From Pithys albifrons albifrons (taxonomy: Eukaryota > Chordata > Aves > Passeriformes > Thamnophilidae): a DNA stretch of 64,000 nucleotides. The stretch is taken from assembly GCF_047495875.1 (NCBI RefSeq), contig NC_092458.1, forward strand, positions 3,989,939 to 4,053,938. Direction: 5' to 3'. Below, piece by piece: positions 1-53,724 of the stretch. Made by a program: the position numbers and the translations under genes. Position 1 is the first letter of the stretch, and each line of letters opens with the position of its first letter. The notes beneath the pieces were generated by a model. It was not told the origin of the DNA. It saw nothing but the letters and a program-made list of their open reading frames with translations, and made no database searches.

Positions 1-1285
1 GACCTCACCTTGCTACAACCTCCTTTCATGTAGTTGTAGACAGCATAAGGCCTCTCTTCAGACTTTTTTCCAGACTAAACAACCCCAGCTTCCTCAAGAC
101 ATTCCTTATCAGACTTGTGTTTCACACCCTCCACGAGCACTGCTGCCCTTCTCTGGACATGCTCTATAACCTCAGTGGCTTTCTTGCAGTGAGGGGCCCG
201 AAACTGAACACAGGATTCAAGGTGCAGCCTTATCAGTGCTCAGTACAAGGGGGGCAATCACTGCCCTGGTCCTGCAGGCCACACTATGCCTGGTACAAGC
301 CAGGATGCCACTGGCCTTCTTTGGTTACCTGGGCACACTAACAGCTCATGTTCAGCCATCTGTCAACCAGCAACTCCAGGTCCTTTTCCCTGGCAGCATT
401 CCAGCCATTCATCCTCCAGCCTGTAGCATTGCATGAGGGTTTTGTGACCCAAAGGCAGGAGTCAGCACTCAGCCTTGCTGAACCTCACACAGTTTGCCTC
501 TGTCCATTGATCTAACCTCTGCAGATCCTTCTTTAGAACCTTCTTGCCCTCCAGCAGACAAACACTCCCGTCCAGTGTGACGTTGCCTGCAAACTGACTG
601 AGGTTGCCCTTGATCCCCTTGTAAAGATCATTGTTAAAAATATTAAACAGGACTGGCCCCAACACTGAGTACTGGGCAACACCACTGGTGACTGGCACCA
701 GCTGGATGTAACTCTATTCCCCACCATGCTCCAAGGCTGGCCATCCAGCCAGTCTTTTACCCAGTGGACAGTGCACACATACAAGTCATGATAAGGCAGC
801 TTTTCCCGGATAATTCTGTGAGACAGTGTCAAAAGCTTTACTAAAGTCCAGGTAGGCAACATCCACAGCCTTTTCTTCATCCATCAAGTGTCACCTATAT
901 ATATAGGCAGTTAAATGCCTCCCTGACATCCGATCCCATCAGATCTCGGAAGCTCAGCAGGGTCAGCCTCGGATTAGTACTTGGATGGGAGACCTCCTGG
1001 GAAATGCCGGGTGCTGTAGGTTCTAGTCCTGAGGACTTCACTGCCACTGTCCAAGCTCGCTCGGCCGTGGCAGATGAACCTCAGGACTGAAACGGTGGGG
1101 CCAGTTCTGCGCACGCTGAGCCTCACCTAAAATCCACTGGGCAGGCTGGAAGGGCACACCCACGTGGGGACAGCCCTGCCCAAATCTGCGTTCGCGAAGC
1201 TGAGCCACACACAAGTGTCAACATGTCATAAAAGGAGGTCAGGTTAGTCAAGAAAGACATGCCTTTCATAAATTTTCATAAATTT
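1..1285 (-). mobile_element. Old CR1 LINE, RT part, split by a SINE
   Basis: This is a decayed CR1 retrotransposon read on the minus strand. It runs off the left edge of the window, so its 3' end is not visible. Conceptual translation gives recognisable pieces of CR1 reverse transcriptase in order: FMKGMSFLTNLTSFYD at about 1225-1275, HLMDEEKAVDVAYLDFSKAF at about 830-890, and SVLGPVLFNIFNNDL at about 620-670. Stops and frameshifts separate the pieces, so it is not functional. The two parts on either side of 885-1220 are contiguous in CR1, which shows that the SINE there inserted into an already present CR1. Where the two young CR1 copies in this window carry a TAG stop after the RT tail, this one reads TAC, so it belongs to a different, older subfamily. 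The 5' boundary near 1285 is approximate. Confidence 0.9.
894..1211 (+). mobile_element. 5S-rRNA-derived SINE, copy 1
   Basis: This is a short non-coding retroposon. The first ~115 bp after GGCAGTTAAATGCC match vertebrate 5S rRNA along its whole length, including TAGTACTTGGATGGGAGACC and the 3' end GGGTGCTGTAGG. The A-box region (AGCTCAGCAGGGTC) and C-box region (GGATGGGAGACC) of the 5S internal promoter are recognisable, so polymerase III transcription is plausible. A ~185-bp body of unknown origin follows, starting near TTCTAGTCCTGAGGAC and ending in GAAGCTGAGCCACAC. A 9-bp target duplication, CAAGTGTCA, lies at 885-893 and 1212-1220. The extra CCTATATATATA at the 5' end is not shared with the other copies. 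It is inserted inside a CR1. Confidence 0.9.
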
Positions 1286-3546
1286 CACATTGTATGCTTT
1301 GAAAACATAAGCATAAATATCCAAGTATGGGAATAATAGAGGTATCTTAACATAAATAAACATTTTGGAAAATATTATGAGATGGCATAGTTCAATATTA
1401 TTTGTACAGTACCTTTGAAGAGTTACATGATCACATGCCTTTTTAAGAAAGGCAAATCTGAAGCCCCTTGTAGGTGTTTTAAATCAGTTGCTAAATGCTG
1501 ATTATATTTTACATGAACTTTTAGGTAGGGTAAGATAAATATGCATATTCCTGGACAGAAAAAATGGCTAAGCAGCTTTATAATAATTTTGGAACCAATG
1601 AAGTATCATGATTCATTATTATTTTAGTGTATGTTACTAGAATTTCTCTGTTATAGCATAGATATACTGACCTGTTCTGCTTTTTTTGCTGTAGATTTTC
1701 ATTAATAACTCAACTGTAAACATATGCTGTAGAATAGAAATACTATGGAGACAGTTTTTAAGACTCCTCCCATTTTCATTTTTTGAAATTTTAAATGAGC
1801 ATATTCAAATGTTTGAGTATCTCAATTAAATTTTTTATTTTTTAAAAAATATAATAAAAATATTAAATATATTTCCTATTTAAAAAAAAAATACCAATAA
1901 AAGTTAGTATAAAAACATACAAGAAAATACCCTCTTGCTTCAAATATTGATATTAGAATTATTAGTGCATAAGGTTCTTCACCACCATGCCCAGCTTTTC
2001 ACAGTTTGTTCTCATCCTCAGATACCTTTCACACTGAGCATTACCAATTAAGTCCTAAATAAAACTAGCTTGCAGTGAATTTCAATTAAGCTATTTTGGG
2101 AACTCAGCCTACAATTAGAAAACAAAAAAAACTAACAAAAAAAACCCCACCCAACCTGTAGAACTCTCTGCCATACTGTTGCACTTAATGCTTGCAGCCC
2201 AGTTAAATTACTGGGAAGGAGAAGCAGCTACCTTTCTGTCTTTATATTTTTCTTTTACAACTGATGAAAGCTAAACAGAAGCACACTGAATACTAAAACC
2301 TGTATATTGAATTCTTGCTAATTTGTATTGCATGAAAATAAAAGGCAATTTCTCATTTACTAAGTGTCATCAATTATCAAATATTATTAGCCACACCAGT
2401 AACTGTTAAAGCACTTAGACTGGAAGCACTGGGTATGTGAGTCATGCCAATAAACCTCTTTTGGAAGGCCTTACGTGTTTGTAAAGATACCTGACCTTGG
2501 CCCTAGAACCACTTATCCACATGAATAACCTCAGTTACAGGAGAGAACCTGATGAACTTGGCAGCATCGTTAAAAATTCATAAATCTGGCTCTGAGCCAA
2601 CACACAAAAGCCAAGCTGATATTCATATGTTAATAATAATGATCCTCACTGTTTTTCAAAGACGTCAAAGAAAAGATGAACATATTTACCTAATCTATAA
2701 ATAGACGACATGTAGCAGACACTGTATTTTCTTTTAATTGAAATGGCACTTTCTGTTTTCAAAATCATCTATCATGCTAAAAGCAAGCTCCAGTGAGTGC
2801 CTGGGGATGCTCCTGCACAGGTGGAAGGACAAGTGAGCCTGGTCTCCTTCCACCTCAGTTCACAGTGCTGTTTGCTCTTTGCCCTTCTTCTGTCACACTG
2901 TCAAGTGGGGTGAAGGAGGCACACACAACACAGTCCTCACTTCTTCACCTCTTGTGTTGCTCCCCAGTACCTTGTTTCACTGCTTCATTATGTCTCTAGA
3001 AAGAGATATGTCTACACAGAAAATACAACAGCAAATACAGATACATCTGGAAGACTTACATGTATGGCAAACAGTTGCAGCATAGAGGTGCTAAGACCAG
3101 CATGAAGAATTAATTGCAGGTGTCTTTAAAGATTTTAATAACAGGATACACAAGTGAAAAAAACCTTCTACATTAGTATGTAAATAAAAATAAAAGTATA
3201 AGTGCTATTTAAATAAAAGTGTCTTGCTTAAGATATCTTAAAGGTCATAGATCAAAGCAGACTTTCTGAAGCAGCAGAGGAAAAATAAAGTCATTTGCTC
3301 TATTTTTAAAGGTACCATGGGTTATATACAACTGGGATACTTTCAGCTGAAGTAAAACTGATTAATTTGCTAGCTCCTGATCAGCATTACCCTTCACTAC
3401 TATGCAAAAGAGTAAGATACACTCAGACACTGTAAATGAGAGCAAGAAGGCCAGGCCCTTTTTCCCATCTAAAATAATACAGCTGCAGTTTTTTGTGAAG
3501 GGAGATTGTGCCATAAAGGGTATAATTAAACATTTTCTTTTTCCAT
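1286..3546. other. AT-rich unique DNA, no gene seen
   Basis: The stretch is AT-rich with short A and T runs (for example near 1830-1890). I see no repeat of a recognisable family, no RNA gene and no reading frame that resembles a protein. The frames at 2793-3085 are short and look like chance. Confidence 0.6.
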
Positions 3547-52785: not shown

Positions 52786-53724
52786 TGTGGTAGTTTTGGC
52801 TTTAGTTCCAATTTAGGCCTTACTTAGGCCTAAACTTTAGCAGGTCTCAAAGGATGTGACATAGATTAGAAGGGACAAACATCACCTGACTTAAGCAATC
52901 AAAGAGGTATTTCATATCATCCAACATCATCAAGAAGTGTCAAGGGGTATAAAAAGAGAGGGAGGAGGAGTTTCTGTCGCTTTCAGTCCCTGCTCCTGAC
53001 CGGGGAGGATGTGCTACTCTGACTGCTGAAATGGGACCTACTGCTGCCCACGCTGTTGTTTATCTAGGGAGGTGAACATTTGCTTGTTAATTTCTCTCTC
53101 TCTTGCTGGGAGGTTTCTCTGGAAGAGTTTTTGGGAGGTTTTCTGGGGTTTGGGTGATTGGAATCTGGGTTATTAACTGGGCAACTCGCTGGAAGTGTTA
53201 TTATTTTTCTTTTCACTTTCATATATGTATGGCCAAACTTCGAGAACGCAGATTTGGGCAGGGCTGTCCCCACGTGGGTGGGCCCTTCCAGCCTGCGCAG
53301 TGGATTTTAGGTGAGGCTCAGCGTGCGCAGAACTGGCCCCACCGTTTCAGTCCTGAGGTTCATCTGCCACGGCCGAGCGAGCTTGGACAGTGCCAGTGAA
53401 GTCCTCAGGACTAGAACCTACAGCACCCGGCATTTCCCAGGAGGTCTCCCATCCAAGTACTAATCCGGGGCTGACCCTGCTGAGCTTCCGAGATCTGACG
53501 GGATCGGATGGCAGGGAGGCATTTAACTGCCTTGTATTCATATATATATACGTGTTATATCATATTCTGTTTTAAATTTTCTTTTTTCTGTGTAAATATA
53601 AAAACCTTACCATTTCAAAGCTCCATTTCTAAGTTGTTTTTTTTTTCCTCACTCCCTTTCTCTGGGAGGGGACCCTCTGGCTCTGTACTGGGCAGTTGTC
53701 ATTTTGCCAGCTCAAACCATAACA
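52786..53724 (+). mobile_element. Solo LTR, 'AAGACA' family, copy A, split by SINE
   Basis: The left end TGTGGTAGTTTTGGCTTTAG and right end TTTGCCAGCTCAAACCATAACA match the ends of three other LTRs at 54891, 57537 and 60976. Without the SINE and its duplicated target it is about 620 bp, in line with the intact copies (626 and 636 bp). The flanks GACTG and GGCTG form a 5-bp target duplication with one mismatch. No internal retroviral sequence is seen. Confidence 0.8.
53227..53536 (-). mobile_element. 5S-rRNA-derived SINE, copy 4 (young)
   Basis: Read on the minus strand it starts with a short leader and GGCAGTTAAATGCC, then a complete 5S-like head and the shared body, ending GAAGTTTGGCCATACA. 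It is nearly identical to the copies at 894 and 37933. A 9-bp target duplication, TTCATATAT, lies at 53218-53226 and 53537-53545, in a TA-rich target. It is nested in an LTR, so it is younger than that LTR. Confidence 0.92.

What the first reader, a model, noticed from the sequence alone, without database searches (positions are those of the whole stretch)
894..53536. A 5S-rRNA-derived SINE family in a bird-like genome
Four separate loci (894-1211, 22799-23101, 37933-38234, 53227-53536 minus) share a full-length 5S-rRNA-like head fused to the same ~185-bp body, and each has its own target duplication of 9-13 bp. The A-box and C-box regions of the 5S internal promoter are recognisable. 5S-headed SINEs (SINE3 class) are known in fish and some mammals. 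Birds are usually described as SINE-poor, and the tRNA-derived type is the one I know. Four copies in 64 kb is a high density. The body's origin and the partner LINE are unknown to me, and I cannot say whether the family is already catalogued.
Basis: partly seen in the sequence, partly recalled or inferred. Interest (0 to 1): 0.8.

Follow-up and report, generated by a model that had tools for sequence, protein, structure and literature searches.

The report
5S-headed SINE borrowing an RTE LINE
Four short jumping elements in this bird DNA pair a 5S ribosomal RNA start with pieces of a long jumping element that probably copies them, an arrangement already published from antbirds, so the finding is real but most likely not new.

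Summary
In detail: four 5S-headed elements of about 300 bp lie at the stated places, each with its own target duplication. They are independent insertions of a family with 5,289 recognisable heads in the 1.144-Gb genome, reversed control 0. Body and 3' end both come from one RTE LINE of the same genome: the body matches about 153 bp of the LINE's 5' UTR at 84-85%, and the last 36 bp match its 3' UTR. The LINE has a ~796-bp 5' UTR, a 1,053-aa ORF and a 37-bp 3' UTR. These are the published dimensions of AviRTE, and a 5' UTR fragment plus the full 3' UTR is the published tail of AviRTE-mobilised SINEs. One of those, GymnSINE of the antbird lineage, has a 5S head. The best HoxA13 match lies on contig C7, probably mid-sized, which fits a chicken-2 fission reported from antbirds and a woodcreeper. 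So this is most likely GymnSINE; its letters could not be compared. Fresh: an RTE copy with an uninterrupted ORF.

The parts
894..1211 (+). SINE copy 1 (young subfamily); target duplication CAAGTGTCA at 885-893 and 1212-1220; 12 extra nt lie between duplication and head; AC-rich tail
903..1022 (+). 5S-rRNA-like head of copy 1
   Evidence: 58.6 bits
22799..23101 (+). SINE copy 2 (older subfamily, 81-83% to the others); target duplication ATACTGAAC at 22790-22798 and 23102-23110
37933..38234 (+). SINE copy 3 (young); target duplication TTCTATGTGGATT at 37920-37932 and 38235-38247; normal 3' end lost, 14-bp duplication at 38209-38237
53227..53536 (-). SINE copy 4 (young); target duplication ATATATGAA at 53537-53545 and 53218-53226
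53259..53411 (-). body of copy 4 derived from the RTE LINE 5' UTR (query 123-275; LINE 5' UTR positions about 282-434)
   Evidence: 85% over 155 columns, E 5e-45
53229..53264 (-). 3' piece of copy 4 derived from the RTE LINE 3' UTR, whose homology starts just after the LINE stop codon
   Evidence: positions placed by eye on the sequence

Best explanation
This is a non-autonomous SINE with three parts: a head from 5S rRNA carrying the internal RNA polymerase III promoter, a body copied from about 153 bp of the 5' UTR of an AviRTE-type RTE LINE, and a tail that is that LINE's 37-bp 3' UTR followed by a short tandem repeat. Shown here: the architecture, the LINE source of body and tail, the independent target duplications, the number of heads, and one uninterrupted LINE ORF with endonuclease and reverse transcriptase. 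Inferred: Pol III transcribes it from the 5S promoter; the LINE protein recognises the shared 3' UTR on the SINE RNA, nicks the target and copies the RNA in (target-primed reverse transcription). The element probably arose when an internally deleted LINE RNA (joined at a GCCCT microhomology) was fused behind 5S RNA by template switching. It is most likely GymnSINE, described from the antbird lineage.
For: 5S head in 4 of 4 window copies. Body equals LINE 5' UTR in 3 of 3 LINE 5' regions fetched, 84-85% over 154-155 columns, E 5e-45 to 7e-43. Tail equals LINE 3' UTR: score 42 for a typed majority form of the young tail and for the old copy, against at most 27 and 23 in 5000 shuffles each; the window copies themselves are 36/45, 36/45, 24/30 and 35/45 identical there; the homology starts directly after the LINE stop codon. 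29 of 30 LINE loci run into the same 3' UTR, one of them with a deletion in it. LINE protein: EN and RT domains, 1102-codon open frame. No TTTT inside 33 of 33 young copies. Old copy keeps the 5S or LINE state at 16 columns where the young subfamily has changed. Published AviRTE dimensions and SINE tail layout agree; GymnSINE has a 5S head.
Against: The GymnSINE and AviRTE consensus sequences (supplementary files) could not be read, so identity by sequence is untested. AviRTE is reported from filarial nematodes and birds, yet no nematode or bird name appears among the 120 listed of 1,508 protein matches; most of those carry no name. The SINE tail repeat is mostly (ATAC)n and the LINE tail mostly (ATG)n, and no LINE 3' end with the SINE's tail was found: the 52 matches to such a pattern read AGCCC or AGTCC where the LINE reads TGCCC. 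Transcription and mobilisation were not observed. 10 of 34 copies have no clear target duplication by the score used.
Confidence: 0.86

Rival explanations
1. An independent 5S-headed SINE that arose in this lineage from its own RTE, parallel to GymnSINE but not the same family.
Against: The placing of the best HoxA13 match on C7 fits the wider suboscine group that holds antbirds, and the head type and bipartite tail are the same.
Confidence: 0.17
2. A SINE moved by CR1, as with the passerine SINEs of that kind.
For: CR1 remains lie in the window, and CR1-mobilised SINEs exist in some birds (passage in PMC8665684).
Against: The 3' end matches the RTE 3' UTR and the body matches the RTE 5' UTR. 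The CR1 end repeat of 8 bp is recalled; an array of TAGAATCA lies beside the CR1 piece at 41558, and the SINE tails are of 4-bp and 2-bp units instead.
Confidence: 0.01
3. 5S pseudogenes or a local duplication rather than a SINE family.
For: There is a real 5S array on C11, and 10 further full-length 5S matches lie elsewhere.
Against: The shared non-5S body, thousands of dispersed heads and different target duplications.
Confidence: 0.01

Closest known systems
GymnSINE (antbird lineage; Suh et al. 2016, PMC4844689)
   Same: 5S-rRNA-derived head; tail of an AviRTE 5' UTR fragment plus the full 3' UTR (paper: results and Fig. 1 legend); host here probably of the same wider group
   Different: Sequence not compared; the consensus sits in supplementary data that could not be opened
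AviRTE LINE (RTE superfamily)
   Same: ORF about 3.2 kb, 5' UTR about 800 bp, 3' UTR about 40 bp in the paper; 3.16 kb, about 796 bp and 37 bp here; named relatives come from aquatic animals, e.g. 76% to a lancelet protein
   Different: The paper found no intact copy in its assemblies; here one copy has an uninterrupted 1102-codon frame
ManaSINE1, ManaSINE2, BuceSINE, MeloSINE
   Same: AviRTE bipartite tail
   Different: Heads from tRNA-Glu, GC-rich sequence or 28S rRNA instead of 5S
SINE3 class (5S-headed SINEs of fish, fruit bats, springhare; recalled)
   Same: 5S head with Pol III type 1 promoter
   Different: Other bodies and other partner LINEs (recalled, not tested)

Membership tests
SINE3 (5S-headed SINE) | Head homologous to 5S rRNA including the internal promoter region | tested here: met
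   Rfam RF00001 in 4 of 4 window copies; alignment of 12 copies to the host's own 5S gene
SINE3 (5S-headed SINE) | Dispersed copies with their own target duplications | tested here: met
   5,289 heads; 24 of 34 against 29 of 1120 mismatched pairs
SINE3 (5S-headed SINE) | Pol III transcription | not testable with these tools
   No expression data; no TTTT inside 33 of 33 copies
AviRTE-mobilised SINE | Bipartite tail: fragment of LINE 5' UTR plus full 3' UTR | tested here: met
AviRTE LINE (partner) | UTR and ORF dimensions | tested here: met
AviRTE LINE (partner) | Sequence identity to published AviRTE consensus (83-99% between genomes) | not testable with these tools
   Supplementary data not available; named relatives are aquatic animals, no nematode or bird among the 120 listed of 1,508
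GymnSINE | Host in the antbird lineage | tested here: inconclusive
   Best HoxA13 match on C7, whose length was not read, as expected if chicken 2 is split; the second marker (MYC) did not complete; species not named
GymnSINE | Sequence identity to the GymnSINE consensus | not tested

The most novel reading that the evidence does not exclude
An AviRTE-type LINE is still intact, and perhaps still active, in this bird together with a 5S-headed SINE. The two sort into different chromosome zones: SINEs are dense in a region near one end of chromosome 1, while young LINEs keep to chromosome interiors. This would be an avian parallel to the L1/Alu split in mammals.
Probability: 0.4. Interest if true: 0.5.

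Novelty: already known. Interest (0 to 1): 0.3.

Why it matters
It settles what an unexplained repeat is and names its partner, so the family can be annotated and its insertions used as presence/absence markers in suboscine birds. The uninterrupted LINE frame matters more than the SINE: the 2016 survey reported only broken full-length AviRTE copies in its assemblies (PMC4844689), so a genome with an uninterrupted frame would allow the LINE-SINE partnership to be tested by experiment.

Tried and rejected
Other partner: a CR1 partner was rejected because tail and body match the RTE. Other RNA families: Rfam at E up to 10 on copy 4 gave the 5S head and four matches far below their cut-offs, E 0.5-8.2; no Rfam family matched two LINE 5' regions at E up to 1. 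Naming the species from chromosome lengths in papers failed (one unrelated crystal-structure paper). A search for SINEs of hoopoe and scimitarbill gave no paper. A LINE subfamily with the SINE's tail was sought; the 52 matches read like SINEs at the junction, and one of them, C1:24428643, lies 262 bp below a SINE head listed. The searches for bird 5S SINEs and for AviRTE listed papers of which I opened only PMC4844689 and PMC8665684; only the former describes a 5S SINE of a bird. The other listed papers were not opened.

What I saw of papers: PMC4844689, abstract, results, figure legends and Table 1, and found passages; PMC7927240, abstract and one section; PMC6107148, abstract and one section; PMC8665684 and PMC5729268, found passages only; all others as search listings. 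Recalled: other SINE3 hosts, names of the 5S promoter boxes, the CR1 end repeat, the place of HOXA in chicken, the L1/Alu split.

Full report
What is there. The four elements are at the stated places: window 894-1211, 22799-23101, 37933-38234 and 53227-53536 minus. All four match the Rfam 5S model end to end, at 58.6, 44, 58.7 and 53.6 bits against a cut-off of 38. Three are 96-98% identical; the one at 22799 is 81-83% identical to them. Their flanking repeats are CAAGTGTCA, ATACTGAAC, TTCTATGTGGATT and ATATATGAA.

Is it more than chance? The window lies in a genome of 1.144 Gb in 53 contigs, at C1:3989939-4053938. A pattern for the element's first 26 bases, with up to 2 mismatches, finds 5,289 places, 2,651 on one strand and 2,638 on the other, and none for the reversed control. 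That is one per 216 kb. A search with copy 4 returned 42 matches from 3,572 first-look candidates, of which 40 were scored: the query's own place at 100%, one at 85%, and 40 at 97-99%, on C1, C2, C3, C4, C6, C8, C15 and C18. I took 34 copies, 4 in the window and 30 others from this list of best matches. In 24 of 34 the flanking-repeat score is at least 9, against 29 of 1120 pairings of flanks from different copies; at 11 or more it is 16 of 34 against 2 of 1120. The copies are therefore independent insertions. Ten of 34 fall below a score of 9, so not every copy has a clear duplication.

Density. The mean is 0.30 heads per 64 kb, so four in 64 kb is unusual for the genome (Poisson P = 0.00025; the window was picked for this, so the value is not a fair test). 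Of the first 100 exact heads listed, all on C1:0-32.3 Mb, 38 lie in C1:2-6 Mb, 9.5 per Mb against 1.5-3.7 per Mb in the five other bins. The window sits in that dense stretch. Ten random 5-kb pieces held none, as the mean predicts.

Anatomy. The head aligns to the host's own 5S gene (L003, from an array on C11:1.30-1.35 Mb) except for its first 14 or so bases. Identity from 5S position 27 onward is 85-87% in the three young window copies and 78.5% in the old one. None of 33 young copies has TTTT inside, so a Pol III transcript could run to the end. The 3' end is (ATAC)n in most of the 34 copies and AC-rich in some. I saw no poly-A tail in them.

The partner. A recalled piece of BovB reverse transcriptase found an abundant RTE LINE: 150 scored matches of 1,725 candidates at 28-32% identity. 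In 29 of 30 fetched loci the LINE runs into one shared 3' end, GCCCTTCTCAAATCTTCGTTCGCGAAGCCTAGCCAT, mostly followed by (ATG)n; L063 departs earlier and L076 has a deletion within it. A pattern for this end with its (ATG)n start and up to 3 mismatches finds 825 places, control 0. A typed majority form of the young SINE tail matches it at 30 of 36 bases, and so does the old copy. The alignment score of 42 exceeds every one of 5000 shuffles for each, at most 27 and 23. The SINE body then proved to be LINE as well: positions 123-275 match the LINE 5' UTR at 84-85% in 3 of 3 fetched 5' regions, at 5' UTR positions about 282-434. The two LINE pieces meet at a shared GCCCT, which suggests an internally deleted LINE RNA as the source of body and tail.

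The LINE itself. One copy, on C26, has an open frame of 1,102 codons, first Met at codon 50, leaving 1,053 residues, with endonuclease and reverse transcriptase domains (on 1,040 residues). The 5' UTR is about 796 bp, measured from the 5' end shared by two other copies and the start codon of the C26 copy; the 3' UTR of the C26 copy is 37 bp. The best full-length protein match is 77% identical and unnamed, a partial one reaches 81% over 59% of the query, and the best named one is from a lancelet at 76%; other names are carp, medaka, penaeid and mantis shrimp and sea urchin. No nematode or bird name is among the 120 listed of 1,508. One search lists further open frames of 1,000 codons or more without stops inside the match; only the C26 frame was checked here by translation.

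Comparison with print. Suh et al. 2016 (PMC4844689; abstract, results, figure legends, Table 1 and found passages seen) describe AviRTE with an ORF of ~3.2 kb and UTRs of ~800 and ~40 bp, related to RTEs of aquatic animals. They report SINEs moved by AviRTE whose tail is a fragment of the 5' UTR plus the full 3' UTR. One of them, GymnSINE in the antbird lineage, has a 5S-derived head. The head type, the tail layout and the LINE's dimensions all agree. I could not read the consensus sequences, which are supplementary files.

Which bird? The best HoxA13 match of four, taken as HOXA13, lies on C7. C7's length was never read; it is at least 48.8 Mb, and by its place between C6 (65.6 Mb) and C8 (41.2 Mb) it is probably 41-66 Mb. 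In chicken HOXA lies on the ~150-Mb chromosome 2 (recalled), so that chromosome seems split here. Among passerines this fission is reported from a woodcreeper and from antbirds (PMC6107148; PMC7927240), though it also occurs in birds of prey. This makes a Furnariides suboscine likely but not proven; a second marker search did not complete.

Order of events. At 16 alignment columns the old copy keeps the 5S or LINE state while the young subfamily has changed; at 32 the young subfamily keeps it and the old copy differs, as expected for an older copy's own mutations; at 4 neither does. A further SINE form, most often reading GGAGAGCCCTTCCC at the junction, gave 52 matches.

Against the reading. 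The tail repeat differs between SINE and LINE, and I found no LINE with the SINE's tail. Transcription and movement are inferred. The 30 genomic copies were chosen by similarity to copy 4, so their mean pairwise identity of 96.2% (435 pairs) overstates how young the family is.

Verdict. It is most likely the published GymnSINE, moved by AviRTE. The fresh part is the uninterrupted LINE frame and the different chromosomal zones of SINE and LINE.

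Noticed in passing
L079 and L082 (G000:C26:2169817-2173125): An AviRTE-type LINE copy with an uninterrupted 1,102-codon frame; the 2016 survey reported only broken copies.
   Followed up: partly
G000, LINE 3' ends and SINE heads: Of 100 listed exact LINE 3' ends (825 in all with up to 3 mismatches), none lies in the first 13 Mb of C1-C8 or C40, while the first 100 listed SINE heads are densest at C1:2-6 Mb. Both lists are cut, and protein matches do occur at C40:6.4 Mb and C5:7.9 Mb, so the pattern is not absolute.
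   Followed up: partly
window 3547-4108 and 45910-46470: A pair of inverted repeats of about 560 bp in four pieces, 96-99% alike; possibly two copies of one LTR-like repeat.
   Followed up: no
window 41573-42592 and 61221-61814: CR1-like LINE remains, the first with a reverse transcriptase fragment.
   Followed up: no
window 36051-36177 and 36948-37074: A 127-bp direct repeat, 98% identical, 897 bp apart.
   Followed up: no
G000:C11:1301696-1349280: The true 5S array: 37 matches of 106 bits or more among the 47 scored of 38,935 candidates, with degraded 5S-like pieces between units.
   Followed up: no
L079 (5' UTR of the C26 LINE copy): An insertion of several hundred bp in the LINE 5' UTR that the other two copies lack.
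   Followed up: no
window 38209-38237: Copy 3 ends in a 14-bp tandem duplication in place of the normal tail, perhaps a slip during insertion.
   Followed up: no
window 894-905: Twelve extra bases (CCTATATATATA) lie between the target duplication and the head of copy 1.
   Followed up: no
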